Assembly (NCBI RefSeq): GCF_009913235.1
Contig: NZ_CP047897.1
Location: 2,727,001 to 2,791,000, forward strand
Source of the DNA: Nibribacter ruber
GTDB taxonomy: Bacteria > Bacteroidota > Bacteroidia > Cytophagales > Hymenobacteraceae
DNA: 64,000 nucleotides
Direction of reading: 5' to 3'
Shown: positions 446 through 60,650 of the stretch, piece after piece
How the letters are laid out: each line of letters begins with the position of its first letter
How positions within the stretch are numbered: the stretch's first letter is position 1
Notes under the pieces: generated by a model
What the model saw: only the letters and a program-made list of their open reading frames with translations
Databases searched by the model: none
Told to the model about the DNA's origin: nothing
Position numbers and translations under genes: made by a program

Positions 446-483
446 CGTTTTTGGGCTGATTTGGCGAAAACAGTTCAAAAACG
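446..483. repeat. 38-bp intergenic palindrome, copy 1
   Basis: Ends CGTTTTTGGGC and GTTCAAAAACG. Degenerate in the right arm. It starts 37 nt after the nrdB stop. Confidence 0.8.
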
Positions 484-540
484 CCCAATAGCTGGTTGGG
501 CTGTAAAAACAGCAAAAAAAGTTTTCTCTGGTGCATATCC

Positions 541-662
541 CTCGCTCGCGTCCCGCGAGTGTGAGAAACGAATGGCCTCTGACCAATTTGCATAAACACC
601 AGAAAAGGGTATTAAAGCGACGGGACGTCGGCAGTAGCCCACACTCGCGGGACGCGAGCGAG
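541..662. repeat. MITE/REP-pair element, copy 1 (122 bp)
   Basis: The 25-bp end at 541-565 is repeated inverted at 638-662 with one mismatch. Each end can itself fold, as CTCGCG-TCC-CGCGAG. The same ends occur at 32714-32856 and 45528-45721 with different interior lengths. There is no coding capacity, so it would have to be mobilised in trans. Confidence 0.8.
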
Positions 663-704
663 TAAAATAGTACCAGCCCTAGAAGGCAGACCCAACACCA
701 AAGT

Positions 705-742
705 CGTTTTTGGGCTATTTTCCAGAAAGTAGGACAAAAACG
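705..742. repeat. 38-bp intergenic palindrome, copy 2
   Basis: Lies between the MITE-like element and nrdA. Outer arms CGTTTTT/AAAAACG intact, inner arm imperfect. Confidence 0.85.
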
Positions 743-849
743 CTTGGCGACGGGCCGGGCAAACCCAAAGAAGATTCCATATTAAAATGCCGCCTTTCGC
801 TTAAAGAACGAAAGGCAATAGATATCTGGGACGACCCCAATCGTCCTTT

Positions 850-865
850 CACCTATATAGTGTAG
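850..865 (+). promoter_or_regulatory. Possible NrdR-box-like half site
   Basis: The stretch contains the perfect palindrome CTATATAG followed by TGT, matching one half of the NrdR box (TATAGTGT). The other half does not match, and the site ends a few bases before the nrdA start codon, which is unusual. Weak call. Confidence 0.2.
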
Positions 866-868
866 CGT

Positions 869-3880: not shown

Positions 3881-4570
3881 ATGGCAGTAAAAACGAAGAA
3901 GATTACCAAAAGACTAAAGCCGCGGCTTTCAGTGAATAAATTAGGAGAGTATTTGAGCGCAGCACCTTATAGAAGGAGGAAAATTCTACAAGATGCAAAA
4001 TATCCTCAAACAGTTATTTTCAAGAGATATAACTCTGCTGCAAATATTATCAGAGACTTTTTTGTTTCTGATAGAAGACATGAATCTATGGTTCAAGATG
4101 CAATAGAGAAATTTAGGCAACAAAAGCCCACTAGCAAATATCAAAGGGAAGTTATCCATTCCTGTATCGAGGCTTTAACAAGATTCATGCAATTCATTGA
4201 AGAATCCTCATTTCCAGAGGGGAATGAATTTCAAGATGGCATAAGTATATCTGCCTCTATTGCAATTGAAGGGACACAAGTAAGTGTAAGACCAGAGATT
4301 TTAATACATGAGAAAGGAAAGGTTGTAGGAGGTGTTAAACTTTACTTTTCCAAATCATTTCCGCTTTCAAAAGATTCTGCGGAATATATAGGCACCTTGC
4401 TAATGAAATATTTAGAGCTAAAATTAGATAGGCCTATTAAATCTAGGAATTGCTTTGTAATAGATGTCTTTAGCAAAACTATTTATACAGCACCAAAGTC
4501 ACATATAAGAAGGTTCCAGGATATTGAAGCAGCTTGTCAAGAAATATCCAGCAGATGGAATTCTATCTAA
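3881..4570 (+). CDS. Hypothetical protein, AT-rich, probably acquired
   Basis: A 229-residue soluble protein of unknown family. The N-terminus is very basic (KTKKITKRLKPR), suggesting nucleic-acid contact. The middle is helical. The second half alternates short strands, with an EILIHEKGKVVGGVKLYF segment, followed by a long helix. The pattern E...GGVKLYF could be read as a worn PD-(D/E)xK nuclease core, but the spacing is not convincing and I would not name it so. Codons are clearly more AT-rich than in flanking genes, a sign of transfer. It lies 62 nt after the 55-aa gene and ends at its own terminator, so the two look like a compact cassette placed downstream of nrdA. Confidence 0.7.
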   Translation: MAVKTKKITKRLKPRLSVNKLGEYLSAAPYRRRKILQDAKYPQTVIFKRYNSAANIIRDFFVSDRRHESMVQDAIEKFRQQKPTSKYQREVIHSCIEALTRFMQFIEESSFPEGNEFQDGISISASIAIEGTQVSVRPEILIHEKGKVVGGVKLYFSKSFPLSKDSAEYIGTLLMKYLELKLDRPIKSRNCFVIDVFSKTIYTAPKSHIRRFQDIEAACQEISSRWNSI

Positions 4571-4631: not shown

Positions 4632-4669
4632 CGTTTTTAGCCTACTTCCCAGAAAACAGGCAAAAAACG
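4632..4669. repeat. 38-bp intergenic palindrome, copy 3
   Basis: Just after the terminator of the AT-rich cassette, 62 nt past the stop of its last gene. Confidence 0.88.
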
Positions 4670-5634: not shown

Positions 5635-5671
5635 CGTTTTTAGGCTAAAACCCAGAAAACAGGCTAAAAAC
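5635..5671. repeat. 38-bp intergenic palindrome, copy 4
   Basis: Between two convergent genes, 17 nt after the DUF3298 stop and 5 nt before the stop of the minus-strand gene. Confidence 0.88.
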
Positions 5672-5675
5672 ACTA

Positions 5676-6440: not shown

Positions 6441-6938
6441 CCCTCAAGATAAAGAAATACCGGCATCCTTCTATATATTCTCGCGGGCATATGTTCCGCA
6501 AAAGCTGCCTTGTATCTCCTAAGGCCATGGTAATCTCTGGAAGCTTCCAGGCTAGGCAATCCAATCATTAGGGCATTCAAACAAAAGGAATTTAACTGTC
6601 TGGTTCTTGCCGTCTGCACAAGAAGTCGTTTTTAGGCTAAAATCCAGAAAACAGGCCAAAAACGGCTTTTCATAAAACCTTACGGAACTTCCATCCAGCA
6701 TTTCATGGCACGGCCGGCTCTTCCAACCCCGCTTTGCTCATTCCAACAAAGAGTAATTTTTCCGCTTGTAAACCAGTCTGTTATCTATTTACCCACAGGC
6801 CTGGGGATAACTTTTCGGGTTGTCAACGGCAGAAACCTGGAAGGCCCTCGTTAGTCTAGCGGCTCCGGTCACCGGCCACACGGGCCTGGCTGCAGCCAAA
6901 ATGTTTTATGTTTTACGTTCACCCTTAATTCCCCCATT
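6441..6938. other. Divergent spacer without a gene
   Basis: About 500 bp between divergent lipoprotein genes. Apart from one copy of the 38-bp palindrome (6627-6664), I recognise nothing. Confidence 0.6.
6627..6664. repeat. 38-bp intergenic palindrome, copy 5 (divergent site)
   Basis: Lies between two divergent genes, about 187 nt upstream of one and 275 nt upstream of the other, where no annotated transcript ends. Confidence 0.88.
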
Positions 6939-7415: not shown

Positions 7416-7453
7416 CGTTTTTGGCTTGTTTTACAGAAAACAGACCAAAAACG
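7416..7453. repeat. 38-bp palindrome, copy 6, with extended stem
   Basis: Between convergent genes. The flanks add another 11-bp complementary stem (AAGAATCCCCG to the left, CGGGGATTCTT to the right), so this copy is the core of a long terminator-like hairpin ending in CTTTTA. Confidence 0.9.
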
Positions 7454-8303: not shown

Positions 8304-8666
8304 AAGATTTACGTGTAGGGGGAAGCTGTCCATAAAAGCCAGCCACTAGAAAGAGCCTGCTCTGGGCAGAAAGGTTGCATGCCCCTTCCAACCACCTGCC
8401 ACTCTACCGCATATTGGGCCGTGCAGCCAACCAATCCTTACCCGTTTGCGCCTCTACGTCTCCTCCCTTCTTCAGGACGATGTTCTAGGGGTATATTATT
8501 AATACAGTGGAAGTAAGCTGCTCCTCTCTTGGAAGTGACAGTAGGCTGATGGGCTTTTTTAATGGGGAGGTTTTAAGATGGGTAGATTTGATAGTGGAGG
8601 TAAAGCACTTGGACCGTTTTTGGCTTATTTTCCAGAAAACAGGCTAAAAACGACAAGGGAATGCTG
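8304..8666. other. Spacer between two minus-strand genes
   Basis: No gene seen. One palindrome copy (8615-8652) sits 15 nt beyond the stop of the STAS-like gene. The rest is unremarkable. Confidence 0.6.
8615..8652. repeat. 38-bp intergenic palindrome, copy 7
   Basis: 15 nt past the stop of the minus-strand gene ending at 8667. Confidence 0.9.
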
Positions 8667-10553: not shown

Positions 10554-10591
10554 CGTTTTTGGGCTCTTTTTCTGGAACCAGGCTAAAAACG
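10554..10591. repeat. 38-bp intergenic palindrome, copy 8
   Basis: 57 nt past the stop of the first Hsp20-like gene, between it and the second. Confidence 0.88.
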
Positions 10592-13084: not shown

Positions 13085-13122
13085 CGTTTTTGGCGTATTT
13101 CATGGAAAACAGCCTAAAAACG
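13085..13122. repeat. 38-bp intergenic palindrome, copy 9
   Basis: 12 nt past the acetyltransferase stop and 39 nt before the next start. Confidence 0.9.
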
Positions 13123-14262: not shown

Positions 14263-14469
14263 TTTGGAGGAGTTTTTAGGGAGGGAATAAGAGTTTGAGG
14301 CGTCTTCAGGCATGGTAGAGGTTTTCACCAATACTTGGGCGGTTTTTCTCATTCCTTCCTTCTTTGGCGCAGAAGTTCCTTCCCTGACTTTTTGCTATTG
14401 CCTCTGCCGAGCACTTGTGTTGGTTTTTCCCTTGGCAGTGCCACTTGTTCCGGTGCGAACTCACTGCCT

Positions 14470-14540
14470 TGTTTCATTGTGTCTGGTAAGCGCTCACGGC
14501 CGCGGGGCCCCGTCCCGTCCCTTCGCGCTGCTGTTGTTTG
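14470..14540. repeat. GC-rich dispersed repeat, copy A
   Basis: TGCCTTGTTTCATTG, then AAGCGCTCACGGCCGCG and GGCCCCGTC, then CGCGCTG: the same blocks in the same order occur at 40063-40133. Both sit in long gene-free spacers. Confidence 0.65.
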
Positions 14541-14805
14541 TGGGACTTTGTCCCTGCCGCCGCTGGCCGCGGCGCACAAACACCAGAGGCGCTCAGGACC
14601 AGGACTCGCTTGGGTCCCAATCTTGCATAGGTTTGATGGTTGGCTTGCTGGTCGTAGGTGATTGCTTTGGCTGTCGCTGCAAAGCCGTGCGTGCTTCGCA
14701 CGGTTTTTATCTGCTGGCACGGGGCCGGCCCGGCCTTGCGGCCTGGACCGCCGATTGTAGGAAAAAGGCGGTGTTTGGTCTCTGCAGGGAACTTCCTCTA
14801 ATTAC

Positions 14806-14843
14806 CATTTTTGGGGTATTTCCCAGAAAATAGGCCAAAAACG
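14806..14843. repeat. 38-bp intergenic palindrome, copy 10
   Basis: Slightly degenerate first bases (CATTTTTGGGG). In the convergent spacer before the GIN-domain gene. Confidence 0.85.
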
Positions 14844-16944: not shown

Positions 16945-16982
16945 CGTTTTTGGCCTATTTCCTGGAAAACAGCTCAAAAACA
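16945..16982. repeat. 38-bp intergenic palindrome, copy 11
   Basis: 31 nt past the stop of the minus-strand gene ending at 17013, and upstream of the DUF3667 gene. Confidence 0.88.
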
Positions 16983-17586: not shown

Positions 17587-17624
17587 CGTTTTTGGGATGT
17601 TTTCTGAAAAAGAGGCTAAAAACG
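17587..17624. repeat. 38-bp intergenic palindrome, copy 12 (divergent site)
   Basis: Between divergent starts at 17528 and 17684; no annotated gene ends here. Confidence 0.9.
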
Positions 17625-19222: not shown

Positions 19223-20198
19223 CCCGGCCATCTCGGTGATTGTGCCCGTGTACAATGAGGAGAAGAACCTGCCTGAGTTGTACCGCCGCCTCAAAGACGC
19301 TCTGTTGAGCCTGCAGTTGCCGCATGAGTTGATTTTTGTGAACGATGGCAGCAAGGACAAGTCGCTGTTAGAGCTGCTGCGCCTGGGCCAGGAAGACGAT
19401 TCGGTGTTTTACATCAATTTCAGCCGGAACTTCGGTCACCAGATTGCCGTGACTGCGGGGCTGGACGCCTGCCGCGGGGCCTGCGCCGTGATTATTGACG
19501 GAGACCTTCAAGACCCGCCCGAACTCATCCCAGACCTCTACCGCAAATACCAGGAGGGCCATGAGGTGGTCTATGCCCAACGGGCCAGCAGAGACGGCGA
19601 CGGTTATTTCAAGAAAATCACCGCCAAGCTCTTTTACAGAATTCTGCGGGCCTCCACTTCCACAGACATTCCCCTGGACACCGGCGACTTCCGGCTCATT
19701 GACCGTAAGGTGATTGACTATCTTAAGCAGATGCCAGAGCAGAACAAATTCCTGCGCGGGCAGATTGCCTGGCTGGGCTTTCGGCAGACGCATGTGCTCT
19801 TCCACCGCGACAGCCGCCGGCACGGCACCTCTGGCTACCCGCTGGGCAAGATGCTGCGCTTCGCCATGGACGGCATCACGGGTTTTTCAGATGCGCCGCT
19901 TCAGCTAGTCACGCGCCTGGGCTTCACCATCTCGGCGGTGTCCTTCCTGATCATCCTGTACGCCGTGTATAGCCATTTTTTATTGCACCGCACCATTACC
20001 GGTTGGACCTCGCTCATCATCAGTTCTATGTTCATTGGCGGCGTGCAACTCCTTTCCATTGGCGTGATTGGCGAGTACGTGAGCCGCATCAACCGCAACG
20101 TCTTAAATAGGCCGCTCTACATTGTGCAAGGCTCTAATCTTGGCAGCCAGTCTGCCGTCATAGCGCCTCAAACTCAGGCGGTGGCAGTACCGTCTTAA
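19206..20198 (+). CDS. GT2 polyprenyl-phosphate glycosyltransferase
   Basis: A 330-residue enzyme of the dolichol-phosphate mannose synthase/GtrB type. The catalytic domain holds VIVPVYNEEKNLPEL, VNDGSKDKS and the metal-binding DGDLQDPPE; two membrane helices (about residues 235-260 and 270-295) end it, as in GtrB/ArnC-like proteins. It should charge a polyprenyl phosphate with a nucleotide-sugar on the cytoplasmic face. The 17-bp overlap with the GT39 gene supports a coupled pathway. The sugar cannot be read from the sequence. A palindrome follows 5 nt after the stop. Confidence 0.92.
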   Translation: MERNSSPAISVIVPVYNEEKNLPELYRRLKDALLSLQLPHELIFVNDGSKDKSLLELLRLGQEDDSVFYINFSRNFGHQIAVTAGLDACRGACAVIIDGDLQDPPELIPDLYRKYQEGHEVVYAQRASRDGDGYFKKITAKLFYRILRASTSTDIPLDTGDFRLIDRKVIDYLKQMPEQNKFLRGQIAWLGFRQTHVLFHRDSRRHGTSGYPLGKMLRFAMDGITGFSDAPLQLVTRLGFTISAVSFLIILYAVYSHFLLHRTITGWTSLIISSMFIGGVQLLSIGVIGEYVSRINRNVLNRPLYIVQGSNLGSQSAVIAPQTQAVAVPS

Positions 20199-20202
20199 GA
20201 GG

Positions 20203-20240
20203 CGTTTTTGGGCTGTTTTCCAGAAAATACGCTAAAAACG
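20203..20240. repeat. 38-bp intergenic palindrome, copy 13
   Basis: Only 5 nt past the GT2 stop, between convergent genes. Confidence 0.9.
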
Positions 20241-20269
20241 GTTCGCTCTATTTACCAAACCATAGCCTC

Positions 20270-20512
20270 TTATACCGGCTCTTTAGACGGCTCTTGAGCG
20301 GGAAAGTGGTTTTTGCGCAGGTTCATGCCGTATGTGTAGTTGGTGGAAAGAATTACGTCATTGCAGTCAAAATGCTTGATGACACCGTCCTTTTGCAGAG
20401 CCACCACCCAGCAGGTGTTCTGGTGCATGCCATAGTCAATGATAAAAATAGCCTGGCCGGTTCCCAGGGGAGTCTCCACCAGAATGGTTGGTTTCAGTTG
20501 CAAGATAGACAT
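20270..20512 (-). CDS. Small hypothetical protein (80 aa)
   Basis: A soluble 80-residue protein with a strand-rich N-terminal half (PTILVETPLGTGQAIFIIDYG, then NTCWVVALQKDGVIKHFDCNDVIL) and a polar C-terminal tail. It looks like a small beta-barrel domain, but I do not recognise the family. Convergent with the GT2 gene. Confidence 0.6.
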   Translation of the reverse strand: MSILQLKPTILVETPLGTGQAIFIIDYGMHQNTCWVVALQKDGVIKHFDCNDVILSTNYTYGMNLRKNHFPAQEPSKEPV

Positions 20513-20672
20513 GGCAAAACACGGTTAGGGGATAGCGGCCAAAAGCCTTTTCTGGCATAGCTAGTAAGAGAACAAACCCAAGGCCCGGTTGTTTTCCTAC
20601 CGCAGGCACTGGGCCTACCAACTGCCCAAAACTTGTTTTATATTAGGCCTTTGAACTCTTATCGCCCAGCCC

Positions 20673-21533
20673 ATGAGAAGCGCGTTCACCCTATTACTGG
20701 CCTTGTGCCTGGCCTGCCCGGTTTTGGGCCAATCAAAAAAAGCCAGCAAGAACCCTCCCGTAAAGCCGTTTGTCATTGGCGTGATTGACCAGGTTCCGTC
20801 AAAGGTGCTAGGCGAAGACAGAACGCTCAACATCTACCTCCCCGAAGGCTACGACCCCAAAGACACCACCCGGTACCCGGTCATCTACCTGTTGGACGGC
20901 TCCGCCGATGAGGATTTTATACACGTGGTGGGCCTGGTGCAGTTCAATACCTTCCCCTGGATCAACCAACTGCCCAAGTCTATTGTGGTGGGCATTGCCA
21001 ACAAAGACCGCCGCCGCGATTTCACCTACCCCACGTCTATAATAGCTGACCAGAACCGGTACAAGACAGCGGGCCATTCTGAGAAATTCATCTCTTTTCT
21101 GGAGACAGAGCTGCAGCCCTACATAGACAGACATTACAAGACCACGGCTGCCAAGACCATCATTGGCCAGTCTCTGGGCGGCTTGCTGGTCACAGAAATC
21201 TTGTTCAAGAAGCCGGCGCTGTTCCAGAAGTACATCATCATCAGCCCTAGCATCTGGTGGGACAACGGTTCTCTGCTGGCGCAGACTCCGGCACCCATCA
21301 CGCAGAAGACAGACGTATACATTGGGGTAGGCAAAGAGGGCTTAACTCCCGGAGACGCGCCGCGGGTCATGGAAGTAGACGCCAACCTCCTCGCCGAAAA
21401 GCTCCGCAACGCCCACAAAAGCAACTTTACGCTCTTCTTTGACTACCTGCCCCAGGAAGACCATGCCACCATCACCCACCAGGCCGTGTTCAATGCGTTC
21501 AGGCTGTTATACCCGTTGCCCGCCAAACAGTAA
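20673..21533 (+). CDS. Secreted esterase of the Fes/IroE-like alpha/beta hydrolase family
   Basis: A 286-residue protein with a signal peptide (cleavage near VLGQ). The esterase domain carries RTLNIYLPEGYDP near residue 50, PVIYLLDG near 69, the nucleophile Ser167 in GQSLGG and the base in EDHATITH near 265, as in the putative esterase (Fes, IroE, antigen 85-like) family. It probably acts in the periplasm or outside. Substrates in the family include siderophores and acylated sugars; nothing nearby narrows this down. Confidence 0.85.
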   Translation: MRSAFTLLLALCLACPVLGQSKKASKNPPVKPFVIGVIDQVPSKVLGEDRTLNIYLPEGYDPKDTTRYPVIYLLDGSADEDFIHVVGLVQFNTFPWINQLPKSIVVGIANKDRRRDFTYPTSIIADQNRYKTAGHSEKFISFLETELQPYIDRHYKTTAAKTIIGQSLGGLLVTEILFKKPALFQKYIIISPSIWWDNGSLLAQTPAPITQKTDVYIGVGKEGLTPGDAPRVMEVDANLLAEKLRNAHKSNFTLFFDYLPQEDHATITHQAVFNAFRLLYPLPAKQ

Positions 21534-21553
21534 GACCATCACCCGCGCCTGCC

Positions 21554-22180
21554 ATGGAAACCTACCAAGCTACGTTTGACACCTGGAACCAGCTGGCCCA
21601 CCAATATCAGGAGAAGTTCATGGACCTGGACCTCTACCAAGACACCTATGACCGGTTCTGCCAGTTGGTGGAAACGCCGTCGGCCAGGGTGCTGGAATTA
21701 GGCTGCGGCCCCGGCAACATCACCAAGCACCTTTTACGCCAACGGCCAGATTTTACGGTAGAGGCCACAGACGTGGCGCCCAACATGGTGGCCCTGGCAC
21801 AAGCCAACAACCCAGCCGCGCTCTGCTACGTGTTGGACTGCCGATCTCTGGACAAGCTCACTGGTTCTTATGACGCCATTCTGGGTGGTTTCTGCCTGCC
21901 GTACCTGTCGGCGCTAGACTGCCAAAAGCTGGTGCAAGCCAGCGCCCACCTGCTGCCCCTCGGCGGAATTTTATATCTTAGTTTTGTAGACGATGATCCG
22001 GAGAAATCTGGGTATGAGACCAGTAGCAACGGGCAGCACACGCTTTTTGTGCACTACCACCGGGCCGTTTTTGTACAGGAAGCGCTCACGGCCAGTGGTT
22101 TTGCTTTAGTAGATACCATCAAAAAGAACTATCTTCCTGTCAATGCTACGCACACCATTCTTTTAGCTCGCAGAATTTGA
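21554..22180 (+). CDS. Class I SAM-dependent methyltransferase
   Basis: A 208-residue protein with a Rossmann-like methyltransferase fold: motif I VLELGCGPGNITKHLL near residue 45, then ATDVAPNMVALA and the post-motif DAILGGFCLPYLS. There is no substrate-specific extension. It lies 20 nt after the esterase gene and 43 nt before the DUF1801 gene, so the three may be co-transcribed. Substrate unknown. Confidence 0.88.
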   Translation: METYQATFDTWNQLAHQYQEKFMDLDLYQDTYDRFCQLVETPSARVLELGCGPGNITKHLLRQRPDFTVEATDVAPNMVALAQANNPAALCYVLDCRSLDKLTGSYDAILGGFCLPYLSALDCQKLVQASAHLLPLGGILYLSFVDDDPEKSGYETSSNGQHTLFVHYHRAVFVQEALTASGFALVDTIKKNYLPVNATHTILLARRI

Positions 22181-22223
22181 TCTTTTACGCTTTCATGTTC
22201 CACCTTTTTCCGCCTCCCCGAAT

Positions 22224-22601
22224 ATGATTACTACCGCGCCCAAAGACATCAACAGCTACCTTGCAGCCTTCCCCGAAGCAACCCAGCGCGCCCTGCAACA
22301 AATCAGAAACCTGGTGCAAGAAACTGTGCCCGAGGCCAAAGAGACCATCAAGTACGGCATGCCCACTTTCATTTACCATGGAGATCTGGTCCATTTTGCG
22401 GCCTTTGTACACCACATTGGCTTTTATTCTGTGCCTACCAGCCAGGACAGCTTCACCAATGACTTGCAAGCCTACAAGGTGGGCAATGGCTCTGTACAGT
22501 TTCCATTAAACCAGCCGCTTCCCTTAGCACTGATCAGAAAGATTGTGACCTACCGGGCACAGGAAAACCTAGAAGCCGCCCTGCATCCACAACACGCGTA
22601 A
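22224..22601 (+). CDS. DUF1801 (YdhG-like) protein
   Basis: A 125-residue protein of the YdhG/DUF1801 family, recognised by IRNLVQETVPEAKETIKYGMPTF and HIGFYSVPTSQDSF. Related Bacillus proteins have been linked to iron handling (frataxin-like), but the wider family has no fixed role. Probably the last gene of a three-gene run with the esterase and methyltransferase. Confidence 0.88.
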   Translation: MITTAPKDINSYLAAFPEATQRALQQIRNLVQETVPEAKETIKYGMPTFIYHGDLVHFAAFVHHIGFYSVPTSQDSFTNDLQAYKVGNGSVQFPLNQPLPLALIRKIVTYRAQENLEAALHPQHA

Positions 22602-22682
22602 CATTTCGTCAAGGCCCAGAGGACCTGCTTTCACTCAACCAGGATTCATGGCTGCCTAGGGTTGGCAACAGCGCTAAGGTTT

Positions 22683-22719
22683 CGTTTTTGCCTCTTTCCT
22701 TAAAAAGAAGCCAAAAACG
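22683..22719. repeat. 38-bp intergenic palindrome, copy 14
   Basis: 82 nt past the DUF1801 stop and 123 nt before the next start. One base shorter than consensus. Confidence 0.85.
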
Positions 22720-22841
22720 ATCTAGCGGTTAATATAGAATTAGTTGAATATTTACGCCTACCTTTGCCTTAGGGTGCTGTCTGAAGGTTTTCTTCTTTTA
22801 TGGAAGCAGCATCTGCGTGACCAACCGGCAACAACAGGCGT

Positions 22842-23456
22842 ATGACCACCCGGCAGCTACATTACCTTTCTGGGCTTCTGCTCACCGCGTTCATTGGAGT
22901 GCACCTCCTCAACCATGCGGCCGCCCTCTGGGGACCTGAGCAGCACATTGCTTTCATGGACACCCTGCGGCTGGCCTACCGCAACCCTCTGGTCGAGACG
23001 CTTTTGCTGGCTGCCGTGGCGGTTCAGATTTTCTCTGGCCTCAGACTTTTCAAAGGCTCCAGAAAAAAGGCAACCAAGGGTTTTGACCGCCTGCACCTTT
23101 GGACGGGGCTTTACCTGGCGCTTTTCCTGCTGGTGCACGTGACCGCGGTGCTGCTAGGCCGCACGGCACTGGGTCTGGACACCAATTTCTACTTTGGCGT
23201 GGCCGGCCTGAATACGTTCCCGTTCTACTTCTTCTTTGTGCCTTACTATGGCCTGGCCGTGGTTTCTTTCTTCGGGCATTTGGCTGCGGTGCACCAAAAG
23301 AAGATGCAGCACTCGCTTCTATTCCTTTCCCCTAGCGGGCAGGCGCTTGCTTTGCTCTTGCTAGGAATAGGCCTGGCCGGATTGCTGTTGTATGGCCTCA
23401 CCAACCAATTTGAGGGCGTAGAAATACCAGCCGCTTACCAACTCACGTCCCCATAA
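22842..23456 (+). CDS. Cytochrome b-like small membrane protein
   Basis: A 204-residue protein with five hydrophobic segments. Histidines lie in or next to helices 1, 3 and 4 (GVHLLNHAAALW, LLVHVTAVLL, FFGHLAAVHQKK). This spacing recalls the succinate dehydrogenase SdhC/fumarate reductase-like cytochrome b fold, so heme binding is possible, but no Sdh genes are near. Start at the ATG at 22842. Function inferred only from topology. Confidence 0.65.
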   Translation: MTTRQLHYLSGLLLTAFIGVHLLNHAAALWGPEQHIAFMDTLRLAYRNPLVETLLLAAVAVQIFSGLRLFKGSRKKATKGFDRLHLWTGLYLALFLLVHVTAVLLGRTALGLDTNFYFGVAGLNTFPFYFFFVPYYGLAVVSFFGHLAAVHQKKMQHSLLFLSPSGQALALLLLGIGLAGLLLYGLTNQFEGVEIPAAYQLTSP

Positions 23457-23771
23457 TCAAACTCCACCATTGCTCTGTCTCTTGATTTACCAATGTTTGC
23501 TTGGCAGGCAGACCTCGATCTGGACCTTCTTACCATGACAAGTTGGTGCGATGTATTGGTACTTACCAGAGGCTACATCCCTTCCCAGCAAGTTAGAAAT
23601 TACCACTTTTCAATTCCTCTCTACACCTAGCCACTCGAAAACATTTTCCAGCGCAGAAGGCCAACCAATATTTGGTAAGGTATAAAAAGCCCTCGCTCCG
23701 TTTTTGGCCTGTTTCCTGGAAAACAACCTAAAAACGGAGCGAGGGCTTTCTAAGAAGCTTATCTAAGGCTG
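23457..23771. other. Convergent spacer
   Basis: No gene seen. Holds palindrome copy 15 with an extended stem close to the stop of the M56 gene; otherwise nothing recognised. Confidence 0.6.
23699..23736. repeat. 38-bp palindrome, copy 15, with extended stem
   Basis: Outside the palindrome the flanks AAAGCCCTCGCTC and GAGCGAGGGCTTT pair perfectly, making a hairpin of over 60 nt between convergent genes. Confidence 0.92.
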
Positions 23772-27017: not shown

Positions 27018-27028
27018 TTATCTTAGGT

Positions 27029-27065
27029 GCTTTTGGGCTGTTTTGGAGAAAACAAGCTAAAAACG
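27029..27065. repeat. 38-bp intergenic palindrome, copy 16
   Basis: 12 nt past the stop of the barrel-like gene and 9 nt before the stop of the next minus-strand gene. First base pair lost (GCTTTTGGG). Confidence 0.85.
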
Positions 27066-28142: not shown

Positions 28143-28180
28143 TGTTTTTGGCCTGTTTTCTGGGAATCAGGCCAAAAATG
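28143..28180. repeat. 38-bp intergenic palindrome, copy 17
   Basis: 42 nt past the arfB stop; right end degenerate (AAAAATG). Confidence 0.85.
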
Positions 28181-28364: not shown

Positions 28365-28402
28365 TGTTTTTAGCCTATTTCCTAGAAAACACGCCAAAAA
28401 CG
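28365..28402. repeat. 38-bp intergenic palindrome, copy 18
   Basis: 44 nt past the stop of the minus-strand gene ending at 28446. Confidence 0.86.
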
Positions 28403-29252: not shown

Positions 29253-29647
29253 AAGCATAAGAACCGTGCAAGGCGGGCATTTGTAAAGCTGGAACAGAAA
29301 CAGGCGCTTTAGCATCCATTGCCCCAATCATGTTTTTCAGCAACAAAGGTACACAGCATTTCCAGAAACGGTAGGCAAGGCAAACCAGGCCAGCTGGTTT
29401 CACGCTTGGCCGGAGGTTGTTCTCAAAGCTTTGGCTTTCTCCTATTTCACTTTTTTTCAGGGGTCAGAGCACCAGGCAGCCCCGCGCCGTTTTTGGCTTG
29501 TTTCCAAGAAAATAAGGCAAAAACGCATCCTTAAGGAAAATCCAAGGCACGCACAACCTTTCTGCAAGCGCCCTTCAAAAAAGAAAGGCCCTAGCGGTTA
29601 AGAGCAGGCAGAGAAAATACGGGAAGCTGAATTATAGAGAGGAAATC
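29253..29647. other. Spacer between two minus-strand genes
   Basis: Apart from palindrome copy 19, nothing recognised. Confidence 0.55.
29488..29525. repeat. 38-bp intergenic palindrome, copy 19
   Basis: 122 nt past the stop of the membrane protein gene ending at 29648. Confidence 0.88.
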
Positions 29648-31418: not shown

Positions 31419-31854
31419 AGGAATGGAATTTACGGAGGATGAATGAGGCAAAGTTGGTATTTTCAGGTGGTATTTCATAGATGACGTTCATCACCTTCGC
31501 AGATTCCTTTTTGGCCTCTTTTCCAGAAAACAGCCTAAAAACTACCCACTTCGGCTGAAGACAAGATCTGGCGCAGACGCTACATTCTGTCTGCTACTTC
31601 GTTCAGGGTCTGCACTTTGTCCAAGCGCCGCTGCTTCTGCGGCTGTCTGCCCCGGCGGTTCTACCCATGCCCGCCTGGGTTGGCGAACTTTAGAAATAGG
31701 CAGGTTTTCATAACTTGTAGGCAGGCTTTTTAGTTATGTCTTATACGGGCATCTTTCACCAGATACCGTTTTTTAGCGCAAAACCTTTACATTCAGGCAA
31801 CTGGGTGCAGGCAATGCCGAAGACAACTCCTTCACCTACCTCATACAAGAACCT
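31419..31854. other. Divergent spacer
   Basis: No gene. Palindrome copy 20 lies at 31506-31543. The rest includes a cytosine-rich stretch without clear structure. Confidence 0.55.
31506..31543. repeat. 38-bp intergenic palindrome, copy 20 (divergent site)
   Basis: Between the divergent MBL-rhodanese and cyanophycinase genes; outer CG pair lost (CCTTTTTGGCC...CTAAAAACT). Confidence 0.82.
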
Positions 31855-32944: not shown

Positions 32945-32982
32945 CGTTTTTGGCCTGTTTTCTGTAAAACAGACCAAAAACG
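32945..32982. repeat. 38-bp palindrome, copy 21, with extended stem
   Basis: Flanks AGCCCCT/AGGGGCT lengthen the stem; between convergent genes. Confidence 0.9.
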
Positions 32983-36763: not shown

Positions 36764-36783
36764 TCAACTCTAGTATCCATACA

Positions 36784-36818
36784 TAGAAGAGGCCCGGCGT
36801 TCGCCGGGCCTCTTCTAT
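36784..36818 (+). terminator. Terminator of the FadL-GDSL operon
   Basis: ATAGAAGAGGCCCGGCG stem with TTCG tetraloop and the full complement, followed by TTTTAT. Confidence 0.9.
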
Positions 36819-36835
36819 TTTATGCCTCTATGAAC

Positions 36836-36873
36836 CGTTTTTGGCCTGATTTACAGAAAACAGGCCAAAAACG
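36836..36873. repeat. 38-bp intergenic palindrome, copy 22
   Basis: Ends one base short of the polA stop codon region, between convergent genes, and is separate from the intrinsic terminator at 36784-36818. Confidence 0.9.
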
Positions 36874-36874
36874 C

Positions 36875-39745: not shown

Positions 39746-39830
39746 AGGCTAGCGAAGGTACAAGCAAAGCGTCTGCCTTGCAACGGTGCTACCTATTTAA
39801 CTGAAGACGCGGCAGAAAGTTAGGGCAGGT

Positions 39831-39868
39831 CGTTTTTAGCCTGTTTTCTGAGATTTAGCCAAAAAATG
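39831..39868. repeat. 38-bp intergenic palindrome, copy 23
   Basis: Located 86 nt upstream of polA; right arm decayed (AGATTTAGCCAAAAAATG). The next gene end on this strand is over 770 nt away. Confidence 0.8.
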
Positions 39869-40062
39869 GTTTTTGATTATTGATTGCCAATTGCTGGTTG
39901 ATGAAGAATGGAAATGCAATCTTAACTTCTAAAGGTAACCCGCCGTCCCCACCGTTGTTGGTGTTATCACCAACAATCTAGACTGCCTCTCTCCTGGAGC
40001 CTGCAATTCATAGGCACTTCCGTTGGCTATCCCTGAAGAGTTTCTTCCTGCCGGTGCCCTTA

Positions 40063-40590: not shown

Positions 40591-40628
40591 CGTTTTTAGG
40601 CAATTTTCCAGGAAATCGGCCAAAAACG
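40591..40628. repeat. 38-bp intergenic palindrome, copy 24
   Basis: 12 nt past the stop of the LolC/E-like gene. Confidence 0.88.
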
Positions 40629-42571: not shown

Positions 42572-42609
42572 CGTTTTTGGCCTGTTTTCTGGAAAAGAAG
42601 CCAAAAACG
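42572..42609. repeat. 38-bp intergenic palindrome, copy 25
   Basis: 40 nt past the stop of the methyltransferase gene at 42649. Confidence 0.9.
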
Positions 42610-45833: not shown

Positions 45834-45871
45834 CGTTTTTGGCCTGATTTCCTGAAATCAGGCCAAAAACG
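45834..45871. repeat. 38-bp intergenic palindrome, copy 26
   Basis: Near-perfect copy; flanks AAAGC/GCTTT extend the stem. 29 nt past the rpiB stop, between convergent genes. Confidence 0.93.
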
Positions 45872-51278: not shown

Positions 51279-51316
51279 CGTTTTGGGGCTATTTCCTGAA
51301 AAACCGGCCAAAAACG
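51279..51316. repeat. 38-bp intergenic palindrome, copy 27
   Basis: Adjacent to the intrinsic terminator of the 81-aa gene, 59 nt past its stop. Confidence 0.85.
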
Positions 51317-53015: not shown

Positions 53016-53053
53016 CGTTTTTAGGCTATTTTCCAGAAAACAGACCAAAAACG
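53016..53053. repeat. 38-bp intergenic palindrome, copy 28 (divergent site)
   Basis: Between the divergent SDR and pterin dehydratase genes. Confidence 0.9.
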
Positions 53054-53370: not shown

Positions 53371-53409
53371 CGTTTTTGGCCTGTTTTGGGTAAAAACAGG
53401 CCAAAAACG
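53371..53409. repeat. 38-bp intergenic palindrome, copy 29
   Basis: 6 nt past the pterin dehydratase stop; one base longer at the centre. Confidence 0.9.
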
Positions 53410-56923: not shown

Positions 56924-56961
56924 CGTTTTTGGCCTGTTTTCTGGAAAACAGGCCAAAAACG
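56924..56961. repeat. 38-bp intergenic palindrome, copy 30 (consensus copy)
   Basis: Matches the consensus in both arms without a mismatch. 45 nt past the inositol phosphatase stop. Confidence 0.95.
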
Positions 56962-57342: not shown

Positions 57343-57380
57343 CGTTTTTGGCTTAAAATCCAGAAAACAGGCCAAAAACG
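57343..57380. repeat. 38-bp intergenic palindrome, copy 31
   Basis: Directly after the intrinsic terminator, 69 nt past the Cys-rich protein stop. Confidence 0.88.
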
Positions 57381-57880: not shown

Positions 57881-57920
57881 AGAAAAAGGGGAGGACGGTT
57901 AACCGTCATCCCCTTTTTCT
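57881..57920. terminator. Bidirectional terminator overlapping the MscS stop
   Basis: An almost perfect palindrome AGAAAAAGGGG.../...CCCCTTTTTCT. It contains the last codons of the MscS gene and lies 24 nt past the stop of the convergent gene, serving both. Confidence 0.88.
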
Positions 57921-58861
57921 TGGTCTTCTGCCGTGGTGGTCACCTTTAGTTTTGTATTGGAGCCGAGGTCTTCTTTCCCGTTCTTCATCTGGATGGACAG
58001 GTCGTGGCCGCCCTTCACACCGAAGTTGAGCGTAGTGATAGGGAACGGAATCTCAATCTTATGCTGGTCAAAGGCCTTCTTGATTTTGATGATGGCGTCA
58101 CTCTTGGCGTACACAAAATCTGTCTGTCGCTTGTAATGAATCCAGTAGCGCACCAAAAAGTCAATGCTGCTAGGCCCGAAGTCTGTGTACACCACCTCTA
58201 CTTCTTTGCCCTCAATCATGCCGTTAATGTCCACCATGGCCTCTTTCACCACTTCCTGCACACGCTCCAAGTCCTCGGCATACGCCACGCCCACCTTCAA
58301 GTCAATGCGCCTGATGCCGTAATGAGAGAAGTTAATCACAGAGGTCTCAAACACCTTGCGGTTGGGAATCTTCACCAGTTCACCCGTCTGGCGGCGCACG
58401 TCTACGGTACGCAGGTTAATGCGCTCAATGGTGCCAAAGTGCTCATTGGTCTCAATCACGTCCCCTACCACAAAAGGCTTTCTAATGGCAATGATCACCC
58501 CAGAGATGAAGTTGGCGGCAATGTCCTGAAAAGCGAAACCCAACGCCAAACCGATGATACCGGCACCCGCCAACAAAGTGGTGACGGTCTTGTCCAGCTT
58601 TAAGATACTGAGCGTAAAAAAGATGCCCAGCATGAGAATGGTCACGTAGACCGTTGTGCCTACCAGGTTGTTGAGCGAGCTGCTGTGCGTGAACCGGATG
58701 AGGAGCTTGTCTGAGGTCTTGCGCAGTATTCTGGCCGCAAAAAAAGTAAGCACCAGAACCAGAGTGGCAATGATCAAGTTGGGGAGCATGAGCACCAGGG
58801 CGCGCAGCCAGAGCTCAAGTTTGGTCCAGAGTAATTGAAACGCTTGGTTTATTTCGGTCAC
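57899..58861 (-). CDS. MscS-family mechanosensitive channel
   Basis: A 320-residue small-conductance channel releasing solutes on osmotic downshock. Three membrane helices; TM3 and the pore are in LAGAGIIGLALGFAFQDIAANFISGVIIAIRKPF (about residues 95-130). The beta domain follows (GTIERINLRTVDVRRQTGELVKIPNRKVFE), then the alpha/beta C-terminal domain ending in a charged tail with DDG. Length and order fit E. coli MscS (286 residues) with an added tail. Confidence 0.95.
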   Translation of the reverse strand: MTEINQAFQLLWTKLELWLRALVLMLPNLIIATLVLVLTFFAARILRKTSDKLLIRFTHSSSLNNLVGTTVYVTILMLGIFFTLSILKLDKTVTTLLAGAGIIGLALGFAFQDIAANFISGVIIAIRKPFVVGDVIETNEHFGTIERINLRTVDVRRQTGELVKIPNRKVFETSVINFSHYGIRRIDLKVGVAYAEDLERVQEVVKEAMVDINGMIEGKEVEVVYTDFGPSSIDFLVRYWIHYKRQTDFVYAKSDAIIKIKKAFDQHKIEIPFPITTLNFGVKGGHDLSIQMKNGKEDLGSNTKLKVTTTAEDQEKGDDG

Positions 58862-58984
58862 AGGTGATGGAGCGGTTGGTGAACAACAGGAAACTTACTC
58901 CCTTACGGCAAAAGCCCTTGGGTAAGTTGCTGGAAATATAGTGACTATCCCAAGCCTATCCCGCATTTGCCTCCATTTATCTTG

Positions 58985-59455
58985 CTAATCACCGGTAAAG
59001 AAGGTAACCGTAAGCGAAACCCGATGCTCGGCTATGCCTGGCATTTCTCTGCCGGCCACAGACTTACCGTACCCGTATAGCAGGGTTGCCCTGCCCATGG
59101 CCGTAAAACCCACCTCTGGCATGAGCCTGAAATCCAAACGGTCTTCGCGCAGGTACACAAGGGCATTCATTCTGGCAGCTAAAACCTGGAACGGATGGTA
59201 CTCTGCAAACCCCTTTAAGCCCAACGTGACTTCATGGTCCAGCACACCCAGTTCTATGCCTTCGCCAAAGCCATAGGAGGGCACCTGCCGGTTGCCGTAA
59301 TGTTGGCCGTGCAGAATGCCCAATTGCAGAAAATGGGTCTTGGCATAGGCGTAGCCTACCATTACCCCGCGCTCATATTCATTAGTAGCCTGCGCCCGGG
59401 CCAAGGCGGGTAAAAACAAAAACACAGGAAGAAAGAAAAGTAGTTTTAAAGACAT
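58985..59455 (-). CDS. Secreted small outer-membrane-barrel-like protein
   Basis: A 156-residue protein with a signal peptide (cut near ARAQ). The rest alternates strands (YERGVMVGYAYAKTHFLQLGILHG, EGIELGVLDHEVTLGLKGFAEYHPF, LVYLREDRLDFRLMPEVGF, HRVSLTVTFFTGD), like the 172-aa protein at 26499, and ends with an outer-membrane type strand. Family unknown. Confidence 0.68.
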   Translation of the reverse strand: MSLKLLFFLPVFLFLPALARAQATNEYERGVMVGYAYAKTHFLQLGILHGQHYGNRQVPSYGFGEGIELGVLDHEVTLGLKGFAEYHPFQVLAARMNALVYLREDRLDFRLMPEVGFTAMGRATLLYGYGKSVAGREMPGIAEHRVSLTVTFFTGD

Positions 59456-59509
59456 AGCCTGCTCCTTTAAAGAATGGAATCACGTCATAGCAGGAAAGTC
59501 TGGGAGAGG

Positions 59510-60571
59510 TTATCCCCAGACTTTGGTGCCCTCAGAGCAGTTTCGGCACATGTCAATGGTGCTTCTACTTTGCAACAGAGAACCTCTAAAGGAACGGTAG
59601 GCGTCGCTTCGCCATACTTCTTTAAACGAGTGATTTTGCAAATTGCCTAACCGGTGGTGGGCATCTTTGTCAAAACAGCAGGGCACCACCAGACCGTCCC
59701 AGGTGATGACGCAGGAATGCCACATCTTCCAGCAGCCGTCTATCAATTTGTTCTTGAGTGAATATGTGCCGTTGGGCTGCTGCTGGTACCGTGAGTAATA
59801 GTCAATGGTGGGAATCAACGGCGACCCGTGCTCATAGTCATAGATCTGCGCAGTCTTAAACCAGACATCATCCACCCCCAGGTCTTTGGCCAGCTGTTTG
59901 GCGTCCTCTATCTGATGCTCGTTGGGCTTTACCACCAGAAACTGGAAAATCAAATAAGGCGTCTTGGAGTTGAGATCGCGCTTTTGCTGCACCAGCCGCT
60001 TGGTGCCTTCCAGGACCTTGTCCAGTTGTCCACCCACGCGGTATTGCTTGTAGACGTCTTGGGTAGTCCCGTCCAGAGAGATGATCAACCGGTCCAGGCC
60101 AGATTCTACGGTCTTGCGGGCGTTGTCTTGGGTGAGGTAGTGTCCGTTGGTAGAGGTAGCCGTGTAAATGCCTTTTTTAGAAGCATACTTCACCAAATCC
60201 AGAAACGACGGGTGCAGGTACGGTTCCCCCTGAAAGTAAAACAGCAGATACAGCAACCGCTGGTGCAGTTGGTCTATGGTGTCTTTGAACAGATTGTCGG
60301 GGAGCATGCCGGTGGGCCGGGTAAACGACCGCAGGCCGCTGGGGCATTCTGGACAGCGCAGGTTGCAAGACGTGGTGGGCTCAAAGGAAATGCTCACCGG
60401 GCTTCCCCAATGGCGCGGTTTTTTGGTCACTCTGGACAAGGCGTAGCTGCTCACTACCTGCAGCGTGTTCCAGGCGCGGCGCGGCGTCAGCTTGGACACA
60501 AAATTCAATCCGTCTTGTAGGGCGCCTCTAGTCAAAGGGTAGGGTCTAAAGCAAATGCGTTGATGTGCCAA
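59510..60571 (-). CDS. Radical SAM/SPASM domain protein
   Basis: A 353-residue radical SAM enzyme. The [4Fe-4S] motif is CNLRCPEC near residue 69, in EPTTSCNLRCPECPSGL; the SAM/GGE-like part is YFQGEPYLHP near 114. A C-terminal SPASM-type Cys set (CWKMWHSC, VPCCFDKDAHHRLGN, MCRNC) suggests two auxiliary clusters. Such enzymes modify peptides or sugars. No precursor peptide or transporter is visible nearby, so the substrate is open. Confidence 0.9.
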   Translation of the reverse strand: MAHQRICFRPYPLTRGALQDGLNFVSKLTPRRAWNTLQVVSSYALSRVTKKPRHWGSPVSISFEPTTSCNLRCPECPSGLRSFTRPTGMLPDNLFKDTIDQLHQRLLYLLFYFQGEPYLHPSFLDLVKYASKKGIYTATSTNGHYLTQDNARKTVESGLDRLIISLDGTTQDVYKQYRVGGQLDKVLEGTKRLVQQKRDLNSKTPYLIFQFLVVKPNEHQIEDAKQLAKDLGVDDVWFKTAQIYDYEHGSPLIPTIDYYSRYQQQPNGTYSLKNKLIDGCWKMWHSCVITWDGLVVPCCFDKDAHHRLGNLQNHSFKEVWRSDAYRSFRGSLLQSRSTIDMCRNCSEGTKVWG

Positions 60572-60612
60572 AAGTAGTCAGCACATCAACGCATTCAAAT
60601 GAGAAACAGCTG

Positions 60613-60650
60613 CGTTTTTAGGCTGTTTTCTGAAAAAGAGGTCAAAAACG
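60613..60650. repeat. 38-bp intergenic palindrome, copy 32
   Basis: Ends one base before the stop codon of the TlpA-like gene. Confidence 0.9.

What the first reader, a model, noticed from the sequence alone, without database searches (positions are those of the whole stretch)
446..60650. A 38-bp palindrome occurs 32 times between genes, about one per 2 kb
Ends CGTTTTTGGCC and GGCCAAAAACG with a TTTTC-TGG-AAAA-like centre. Copies start at 446, 705, 4632, 5635, 6627, 7416, 8615, 10554, 13085, 14806, 16945, 17587, 20203, 22683, 23699, 27029, 28143, 28365, 29488, 31506, 32945, 36836, 39831, 40591, 42572, 45834, 51279, 53016, 53371, 56924, 57343 and 60613. None lies inside a gene I support, and most begin or end within 50 nt of a stop codon. 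The outer CGTTTTT/AAAAACG is kept even when the middle has changed, which suggests selection or recent spread. The T-run is inside the stem and no T-run follows, so it is not a standard intrinsic terminator. It could be a novel terminator or 3'-end processing site, a nucleoid-protein or uptake site, or a REP-like mobile palindrome.
Basis: seen in the sequence. Interest (0 to 1): 0.8.

Follow-up and report, generated by a model that had tools for sequence, protein, structure and literature searches.

The report
Conserved DNA palindrome punctuating Rufibacter genes
A 40-letter mirror-image DNA signal sits after genes, most of all where two genes face each other, in one group of bacteria; it keeps its places from one species to its sister while its spelling shifts like a dialect in others, which suggests that an unknown protein reads it to mark where genes end.

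Summary
All 32 copies are where stated. The genome (Rufibacter, Bacteroidota) has 1,549 by pattern, about 1,840 by extrapolation. All 16 held genus genomes carry the family; samples outside it essentially do not.

Tools add: (1) Occupancy of orthologous gaps is almost perfectly conserved between two species (142 both, 2 one-sided, 109 neither), mostly in base register, so copies are old and stable there. (2) Other species spell it differently at shared junctions. (3) In this genome the arms vary independently (535 copies), sense-strand G.U equals A.C, the loop is 4 nt in 466 of 475 pairs and lone arms are hardly in excess: a double-stranded, protein-read palindrome of about 40 bp rather than an RNA hairpin. 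(4) It fills 100 of 111 convergent gaps of 100 nt or more, 36 of 36 in the backbone shared with the sister. (5) A canonical terminator, when present, usually comes first.

Best explanation: a two-way transcription-unit boundary (roadblock or insulator) read by an unidentified protein; a topological anchor is the closest rival. REP, uptake-sequence and intrinsic-terminator membership each fail a tested feature. Three other species show arm covariation, which partly favours hairpin models.

The parts
446..483 (.). palindrome copy, codirectional gap
   Evidence: orthologous copy in G017 at the same offset
705..742 (.). palindrome copy, codirectional gap
   Evidence: orthologous copy in G017
4632..4669 (.). 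palindrome copy after a terminator-like hairpin, codirectional gap
5635..5672 (.). palindrome copy, convergent gap, 4 nt from a stop
6627..6664 (.). palindrome copy, divergent gap
7416..7453 (.). palindrome copy in the loop of a copy-specific stem with T-rich tail, convergent gap
8615..8652 (.). palindrome copy, codirectional gap
   Evidence: G017 copy in the same gap
10554..10591 (.). palindrome copy, codirectional gap
   Evidence: no G017 copy by the scan, but one by the PWM scan
13085..13122 (.). palindrome copy, codirectional gap
   Evidence: G017 copy at the same offset
14806..14843 (.). palindrome copy containing the stop of ORF 14312-14833, convergent gap
   Evidence: G017 copy in the same gap
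16945..16982 (.). palindrome copy, codirectional gap; gap occupied in all five relatives compared
17587..17624 (.). palindrome copy, divergent gap
   Evidence: G017 copy within 1 nt of the same offset
20203..20240 (.). palindrome copy, convergent gap, 5 nt from a stop
22682..22719 (.). palindrome copy, imperfect, codirectional gap
23699..23736 (.). palindrome copy in the loop of a copy-specific stem, convergent gap
27028..27065 (.). palindrome copy, convergent gap; gap also occupied in G048 and G012 (not in G022 or G006 by the same scan)
28143..28180. palindrome copy, convergent gap; gap occupied in G017, G048, G012 and G006 (not G022) by the scan
28365..28402 (.). second palindrome copy in the same convergent gap
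   Evidence: G017 copy within 1 nt of the same offset
29488..29525. palindrome copy, codirectional gap; gap occupied in G048, G012 and G006 (not G022) by the scan
31506..31543. palindrome copy, divergent gap; gap empty in G048, G012, G022 and G006 by the scan
   Evidence: G017 copy at the same offset
32945..32982 (.). palindrome copy in the loop of a copy-specific stem, convergent gap; gap occupied in G017 and, in other dialects, in G048 and G012 (not G006 by the same scan)
36836..36873 (.). palindrome copy after a canonical terminator (36781), convergent gap
39831..39868 (.). palindrome copy, degenerate right arm, codirectional gap
   Evidence: G017 copy in the same gap
40591..40628 (.). palindrome copy, codirectional gap
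   Evidence: G017 copy in the same gap
42572..42609 (.). palindrome copy, codirectional gap
   Evidence: G017 copy within 1 nt of the same offset
45834..45871 (.). palindrome copy, near-perfect, convergent gap
   Evidence: G017 copy in the same gap
51279..51316 (.). palindrome copy, codirectional gap, next to a terminator-like hairpin
   Evidence: G017 copy in the same gap
53016..53053 (.). palindrome copy, divergent gap
   Evidence: G017 copy within 2 nt of the same offset
53371..53409 (.). palindrome copy, 39 bp (loop of 5), codirectional gap
   Evidence: G017 copy within 1 nt of the same offset
56924..56961 (.). palindrome copy, perfect 17-bp arms, codirectional gap
   Evidence: G017 copy in the same gap
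57343..57380 (.). palindrome copy after a terminator-like hairpin, codirectional gap
   Evidence: G017 copy within 2 nt of the same offset
60613..60650 (.). palindrome copy, codirectional gap, 2 nt from a stop
   Evidence: G017 copy in the same gap

Best explanation
It is a genus-wide DNA element of about 40 bp (Y-CGTTTTTGGCCTGTTTTC-N2-GAAAACAGGCCAAAAACG-R in this species), inherited in place, that marks junctions between transcription units. Shown: it lies at the ends of protein genes and is almost obligatory between convergent genes; its position is conserved between this species and G017 and mostly shared with farther relatives; its sequence is under position-specific constraint; in this genome it behaves as a double-stranded site with two independent, rigidly spaced, equally strong halves. 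Inferred: a symmetric sequence-specific DNA-binding protein, not identified here, binds it. Each half carries two T tracts about one helical turn apart, and the bound complex stops or insulates RNA polymerase from either side, as a backstop behind intrinsic terminators or in their place. The species dialects would then be co-evolution of about 1,800 sites with the protein's specificity.
For: Convergent gaps of 100 nt or more occupied 100 of 111; codirectional of 200 nt or more 136 of 201; divergent of 200 nt or more 60 of 119. Convergent gaps of 100 nt or more whose two genes both have a G017 ortholog 36 of 36, the rest 2 of 5. About one copy per gap: convergent empty fraction 0.10 against Poisson 0.33 in G000, 0.04 against 0.31 in G017. 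Orthologous occupancy (both / G000 only / other only / neither): G017 142/1/1/109, G012 13/1/0/12, G022 12/0/1/10, G006 12/2/0/10, G048 10/2/1/5. 86 of 106 G000/G017 pairs in base register against 37 of 530 random placements; columns 4-6 and 33-35 at 0.98-1.00, columns 15, 16, 23, 24 at 0.95-0.97, flanks 0.77. Arms independent in 535 copies (z -1.6); G.U 266 and A.C 263 on the sense strand of codirectional copies. Loop 4 nt in 466 of 475 inverted half-site pairs; upstream and downstream halves equally strong, 25.47 and 25.53 bits. Lone halves at score 14 or more: 26 against 14 in the control, 1,009 inside palindromes. Order stop, terminator, palindrome in 40 of 47 codirectional cases; without a terminator the palindrome lies a median 34 nt after the stop, n 225.
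Against: No binding protein was identified and no expression data were available. Canonical terminators coexist with the element. In convergent gaps they occur in 59 of 131 with it and 21 of 29 without (Fisher p 0.013), G017 30 of 55 and 6 of 7, but in G048 the other way, 23 of 37 and 5 of 13; in codirectional gaps there is no difference, 50 of 250 and 49 of 256. In G048 the one-per-gap pattern is weak (convergent empty fraction 0.23 against 0.32, two or more 0.36 against 0.32) and the total strengths of the two halves correlate (r 0.51; G000 0.09, G017 -0.09). 60 of 119 long divergent gaps carry the element, where no terminator is needed. tRNA genes mostly lack it: 3 of 15 have a copy within 300 nt downstream. 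R. ruber, R. sp. XAAS-G3-1 and R. roseus show arm covariation, which a plain dimer site does not predict. Occupancy of G017/G048 shared gaps is less clean: 7 both, 2, 2, 6. Information content of about 50 bits far exceeds the roughly 12 bits needed to find 1,840 sites in 4.35 Mb (own arithmetic), so something besides simple recognition may hold the sequence uniform.
Confidence: 0.47

Rival explanations
1. Topological or nucleoid anchor: the palindrome binds a nucleoid protein, gyrase or another topoisomerase where positive supercoils collect behind genes, as proposed for BIME/REP and gyrase in E. coli (recalled).
For: The ranking convergent > codirectional > divergent fits supercoiling as well as termination; it behaves as a double-stranded site in this genome; the T/A tracts of each half are about one helical turn apart, which may bend DNA (inference); it lies after, not instead of, many terminators.
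Against: Gyrase-type sites are not known to need a 50-bit, rigidly spaced palindrome with species dialects (recalled); in G000 and G017 placement is about one per junction.
Confidence: 0.2
2. RNA hairpin: the transcribed palindrome is a 3'-end stabiliser, processing site or terminator stem.
For: Strong hairpins are predicted for many window copies; 29 of 535 copies sit inside longer terminator-like stems against 5.3 expected; position 7-32 covaries in R. ruber, XAAS-G3-1 and R. roseus, 0 of 200 permutations each; G022 has 66 matched non-consensus pairs against 50.9, sd 5.5; XAAS-G3-1 has more G.U than A.C on the sense strand, 45 and 28, and R. roseus 27 and 19.
Against: No covariation in G000, G017, G048 or G012 (z -1.6, -0.6, -0.6, -0.6); no excess of G.U over A.C in G000 codirectional copies (266 and 263), nor in R. 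ruber (60 and 57) or R. sediminis (9 and 12); T and A are fixed at places where any pair would do; no T run in the flanks of the family as a whole.
Confidence: 0.15
3. Palindromic DNA uptake sequence spread and kept uniform by transformation, with species dialects as in Neisseriaceae.
For: Species dialects at shared places; 6 of the 12 longest copy-free stretches have G+C of 48.1% or less; inverted-pair uptake sequences near terminators and a dyad, perhaps dimer-based, form are described (PMC3630211, passages).
Against: Lone half-sites are hardly in excess, 26 against 14 at score 14, 12 against 4 at score 18, beside about 1,000 in palindromes; PF00437 assembly ATPases of type IV pili and type II secretion are over cut-off in 0 of 16 genomes, with weak sub-threshold matches in 8; occupancy is tied to gene junctions.
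Confidence: 0.08
4. REP- or MITE-like mobile palindrome that spreads by transposition.
For: High copy number, intergenic, species-specific consensus; Y1 transposase (PF01797) genes in 15 of 16 genomes; R. ruber copies look like a mixture of subtypes.
Against: Only 2 of 144 occupied G000/G017 gaps differ; G017 has no PF01797 match although it has 1,272 copies; no conserved foot such as GTAG or CGTC in the flanks; gaps of 100 nt or more are occupied in 141 of 208 cases with two G017-orthologous flanks, 14 of 28 with one and 1 of 7 with none.
Confidence: 0.1

Closest known systems
REP/BIME elements with RAYT transposases (GTAG and CGTC families; PMC3733652, passages)
   Same: Short imperfect palindromes, many copies, intergenic, often after genes, species-specific consensus (partly recalled)
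   Different: No tetranucleotide foot; positions conserved between G000 and G017; Y1 transposase absent in G017; in this genome the sequence rather than the pairing is conserved
DNA uptake sequences (Neisseriaceae DUS, Pasteurellaceae USS; PMC3630211, passages)
   Same: Over a thousand copies (recalled), species dialects, inverted pairs near terminators
   Different: Half-sites hardly ever stand alone; rarely in predicted coding sequence, 29 of 533; placed about once per gene junction in G000 and G017; no pilus-type assembly ATPase over cut-off in the genus
Intrinsic (Rho-independent) terminators
   Same: Location after stop codons and between convergent genes; symmetric; sometimes nested in a terminator-like stem
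   Different: T tract in the 5' arm and none in the flanks of the family as a whole, arms do not covary in this genome, follows a separate terminator in 40 of 47 codirectional cases with both
Protein roadblock terminators (for example Reb1/TTF-I and mTERF outside bacteria; recalled)
   Same: DNA-bound protein at gene ends stopping polymerase
   Different: No protein identified here; no genome-wide bacterial example known to me (recalled)
Spaced motifs at gene ends reported by PMC5217627 (passages)
   Same: Unexplained intergenic, partly palindromic motifs, several often between convergent genes, in other bacteria
   Different: 52 to 125 copies, other sequences; no conservation of sites or dialects described in the passages seen

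Membership tests
REP/RAYT elements | Conserved GTAG or CGTC tetranucleotide at one foot of the palindrome | tested here: not met
   Flank columns show a strong preference only at -1 (Y) and +39 (R), no tetranucleotide
REP/RAYT elements | Associated Y1 (RAYT) transposase in genomes with the family | tested here: not met
   PF01797 in 15 of 16 genus genomes, none in G017, which has 1,272 copies
REP/RAYT elements | Mobility: presence/absence differences between relatives | tested here: not met
   G000/G017: 142 shared, 2 one-sided gaps; farther relatives show 1 to 3 one-sided gaps of 18 to 26 compared
DNA uptake sequence | Single-site motif over-represented on its own | tested here: not met
   Lone halves 26 against 14 control at score 14; 1,009 in palindromes
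DNA uptake sequence | Type IV pilus uptake machinery | tested here: not met
   PF00437 over cut-off in 0 of 16 genomes, sub-threshold in 8; other pilus or competence genes were not searched
DNA uptake sequence | Uptake advantage in transformation | not testable with these tools
   Needs an experiment
Intrinsic terminator | G+C stem followed by a T tract | tested here: not met
   T tract lies in the 5' arm; flank bases +1 to +8 are 3 to 37% T; exceptions are nested copies, 29 of 535 by the stem score
Intrinsic terminator | Compensatory pairing of the stem | tested here: inconclusive
   None in G000, G017, G048, G012; present in R. ruber, XAAS-G3-1, R. roseus
Protein-bound boundary element | Rigid, symmetric, independently varying half-sites | tested here: met
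   In G000: loop 4 nt in 466 of 475; arms independent. Independence is not met in R. ruber, XAAS-G3-1 and R. roseus
Protein-bound boundary element | A cognate sequence-specific protein | not tested
Protein-bound boundary element | Blocks or insulates transcription | not testable with these tools
   Needs expression data or reporters

The most novel reading that the evidence does not exclude
Rufibacter has a genome-wide DNA punctuation system: one dedicated protein binds about 1,800 palindromes, essentially every convergent junction of the conserved backbone among them, as two-way roadblock terminators or insulators, and protein and sites have co-evolved through whole-genome dialect changes within the genus.
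Probability: 0.35. Interest if true: 0.92.

Novelty: categorically new. Interest (0 to 1): 0.8.

Why it matters
Bacteria are thought to end transcription with RNA hairpins or Rho (recalled). A positionally conserved, near-obligatory double-stranded DNA signal at gene junctions would be a third means of marking where genes end, or a clear genome-wide set of supercoiling anchors. The dialects give an unusual natural experiment: how can over a thousand sites in one genome change spelling and stay in place? Both questions become directly testable in culturable environmental species (culturability recalled; named strains are listed).

Tried and rejected
RAYT-driven REP: rejected as the maintaining force because G017 has no PF01797 match. 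Uptake sequence: set low on lone half-sites and the missing pilus-type ATPase. RNA hairpin in this genome: set low on covariation and G.U/A.C balance. Insertion-sequence origin: 21 lone half-sites (score 15 or more) in about 2.2 Mb of three genomes were listed, 9 of them intergenic; their neighbours were not annotated, so this is only a glance, and some look like decayed palindromes by eye. Plasmids and phages: no blastn match to the consensus 38-mer at E 0.01. Rfam: no match in the window at gathering scores. A consensus terminator scan of window 20000-39999 found 32 sites against 22.9 (sd 5.1) in shuffles and included the copy at 32945 on the - strand.

Failed or weak steps: the reversed-sequence control is useless for inverted repeats; the masked alignment penalised mask against mask and was replaced; the first PolA tree used wrong frames and was replaced. 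The comparison with G048 is small (18 gaps), so the claim that the dialect changed in place there rests on few sites, none of 3 testable ones in register. R. ruber, XAAS-G3-1, R. roseus and R. sediminis loci were chosen by a perfect core in at least one copy, which inflates the 17-pair z values (6.6, 7.6, 3.3, 2.0); positions 7-11 were not part of that choice. Genes were called with a home-made dicodon model, so starts are approximate and some small genes were missed, e.g. 3881-4570. In the G000/G017 register test the freest columns (13 and 26, 0.59 and 0.53) are less conserved than the flanks (0.77), which I did not explain. No systematic hunt for the binding protein was made. Pfam scans of 20 window proteins named ordinary genes or nothing and gave no candidate.

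Full report
OBSERVATION. All 32 copies exist at the stated coordinates, with three small corrections of register or length. In the window 31 of 32 are outside predicted genes, 20 of 32 have an edge within 50 nt of a stop codon, and the contexts are 11 convergent, 17 codirectional and 4 divergent. The window is positions 2727001-2791000 of a single-contig genome of 4,352,178 bases; the degenerate pattern with up to 3 mismatches has 1,549 forward matches there and none for the reversed control. A position-weight scan of 1.264 Mb of this genome found 535 copies and none in the reversed control, which extrapolates to about 1,841.

WHERE IT OCCURS. Of 200 genomes of the family, the 16 genus members (own genome included) all have it, with 13 to 1,549 forward matches to this species' pattern; of the other 184 genomes, 4 have a single forward match each. 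With a more general core the 16 have 37 to 1,524. In an order-wide sample of 291 genomes, 4 of them of the genus, 10 of the 287 others match: nine with 1-2, which is chance level (the reversed control has single hits in 16 genomes), and G302 with 17, where the listed ones are mostly near-matches of a different palindrome. So this is Rufibacter in the broad sense. Four outgroup genomes from three other genera of the family, 40 kb each, show terminator-like hairpins and no such family; the G024 stretch was chosen around its single match.

GENOMIC CONTEXT. Of 533 copies in the 1.264-Mb sample (core scan), 504 lie in gaps and 29 mostly within predicted genes. Occupied gaps of 20 nt or more: convergent 131 of 163, codirectional 251 of 527, divergent 65 of 168; convergent gaps of at least 100 nt, 100 of 111. 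In codirectional gaps copies lie a median 41 nt after the upstream stop and 116 nt before the next start, and 207 of 279 are nearer the stop. In G000, 76 of 110 convergent gaps above 100 nt hold exactly one copy, 23 more than one and 11 none; the empty fraction is below Poisson in G000 and G017 but only slightly so in G048. In the stretch collinear with G017, convergent gaps of at least 100 nt whose two genes both have a G017 ortholog are occupied in 36 of 36 cases; where one or both lack it, 2 of 5. Over all gap kinds: 141 of 208 with two orthologous flanks, 14 of 28 with one, 1 of 7 with none. Of the 12 longest copy-free stretches 6 have G+C of 48.1% or less. tRNA genes: 3 of 15 have a copy within 300 nt downstream.

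CONSERVATION OF PLACE. G000 and G017 proteins are 87% identical at the median in the window region and about 92% for genes also found in farther relatives. Of 253 orthologous gaps compared, 142 are occupied in both, 1 and 1 in one only, 109 in neither. Of 115 single-copy pairs 106 passed the length limits for alignment with the palindromes masked; 86 are in base register, against 37 of 530 with randomly placed masks. In those 86 the flanks are 77% and the palindromes 84% identical; columns 4-6 and 33-35 reach 98-100%, columns 13 and 26 only 59 and 53%. Orthologous copies resemble each other more than shuffled pairs (31.5 against 29.0 of 38, 0 of 500 shuffles), so they descend in place. In farther relatives occupancy is again mostly shared (both / G000 only / other only / neither): G012 13/1/0/12, G022 12/0/1/10, G006 12/2/0/10, G048 10/2/1/5; G017 against G048 7/2/2/6. 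Register there, in the order G012, G022, G006, G048: 2 of 7, 2 of 9, 2 of 6 and 0 of 3, with controls 3 of 35, 3 of 45, 4 of 30 and 1 of 15, so it could not be shown.

DIALECTS. The half-site consensus differs by species: CGTTTTTGGCCTGTTTTC in G000 and G017, CGTTTTCGGGCTCATTTC in G048, CGTTTTGGGCCTGTTTTC in G012, TGTTTTAGGGCTGTTTTC in G022 and TGTTTTAAGGCTGTTTTC in G006. Information content is 50.4, 48.0 and 50.5 bits in G000, G017 and G048, 39.5 in G012, 29.2 in G022 and 25.6 in G006. A PolA tree places G048 with G000 (support 81/70), then G017 (99/97), then G012 (97/95), so the G048 dialect seems to have arisen inside this clade; this is one gene, and the sample of shared G048 gaps is small.

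WHAT READS IT. In G000 the pairing of the two arms is what independent arms would give: 13.45 of 17 pairs observed, 13.52 permuted, z -1.6, with 1,799 one-arm deviations. On the sense strand of codirectional copies G.U and A.C mismatches are equal, 266 and 263. Two inverted halves are 4 nt apart in 466 of 475 cases; the half facing transcription is as strong as the other (25.47 and 25.53). Lone halves at score 14 or more number 26 against 14 in the control and 1,009 in palindromes. The next flank base is mostly a pyrimidine before and a purine after (85 and 84%), giving about 40 bp. This is the behaviour of a double-stranded, symmetric protein site. Against a simple version: R. ruber, XAAS-G3-1 and R. 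roseus copies covary at position 7-32 (0 of 200 permutations reach the observed value in each; R. sediminis 10 of 200, G012 156 of 200); R. ruber looks like a mixture of symmetric subtypes; G022 has some matched non-consensus pairs in excess (66 against 50.9); XAAS-G3-1 has more G.U than A.C (45 and 28); and in G048 the total strengths of the halves correlate (r 0.51).

RELATION TO TERMINATORS. With a simple terminator finder, convergent gaps with the palindrome have a canonical terminator in 59 of 131 cases and those without in 21 of 29 (Fisher p 0.013); G017 30 of 55 and 6 of 7, G048 the other way, 23 of 37 and 5 of 13. Codirectional gaps: 50 of 250 and 49 of 256. Outgroup convergent gaps have one in 13 of 16, those of six Rufibacter genomes in 154 of 281 (p 0.04). 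When both are present in a codirectional gap the palindrome comes second in 40 of 47 (G017 13 of 19, G048 22 of 28). In 29 of 535 copies the palindrome is in the loop of a longer stem, 18 of these in convergent gaps. The element is therefore not itself a standard terminator; it shares the place, and the evidence that it stands in for one is weak and mixed.

MECHANISM. The most economical reading is a boundary element: a protein bound to the palindrome stops polymerase that has run past the gene end, from either side. This explains the symmetry, the convergent preference, the order behind terminators and the purifying selection. The presence in half of the long divergent gaps suggests insulation more generally. 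A supercoiling anchor would give much the same anatomy. The protein is inferred, not found. Why the sequence carries far more information than location needs, and how all sites change dialect, is open.

KNOWN SYSTEMS. REP elements (passages of PMC3733652), uptake-sequence dialects (passages of PMC3630211) and intrinsic terminators each fail at least one tested defining feature. Unexplained spaced motifs, several between convergent genes, are on record for other bacteria (passages of PMC5217627). Searches of the held library for Hymenobacteraceae or Rufibacter with palindrome, Bacteroidetes with intergenic palindromic repeat and REP, Rufibacter with repeat, Cytophagales with palindromic intergenic repeat, convergent genes with palindromic motif terms, and REP with orthologous or vertical inheritance listed no title or abstract start that describes this family (listings only, 20 of 37 shown and 10 of 82). 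Many subscription papers are not held, so absence from print is not proved.

Corrected against the calls: per-column identities, the range, gap counts for lineage-specific flanks, and results against the reading that had been left out (G048 terminator counts, spacing and arm correlation, G022 and XAAS-G3-1 pairing, the G017/G048 comparison).

Noticed in passing
genome G302 (other family of the order), loci L307-L312: A different 27-bp palindrome, CGTTTTGGGC-N-TTTTTT-GCCCAAAACG, has 1,121 forward matches in this 72%-complete genome and none in six relatives, two of them of the same genus.
   Followed up: partly
7416, 23699, 32945 in the window; 29 copies in the genome sample: Palindromes nested in the loop of longer, copy-specific stems, some with an A run before and a T run after, as if terminators had grown around them.
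   Followed up: partly
G000 contig positions 2988509-3008975: A 20-kb stretch of 39% G+C without any copy, with a few large ORFs; perhaps foreign DNA.
   Followed up: no
5635, 6627 and 57343 in the window: Three copies share the off-pattern stretch TAAAA(T/C)CCAG in the left arm and centre, a possible subtype.
   Followed up: no
Rufibacter genus, 15 of 16 genomes: Y1 transposase (PF01797) matches, many in open frames of 180-200 aa, one to six per genome, none in G017.
   Followed up: no
R. ruber loci (LRMM contigs): Position 7 of the arm takes all four bases, often matched between arms, and goes with position 10 within an arm, suggesting coexisting symmetric subtypes.
   Followed up: partly
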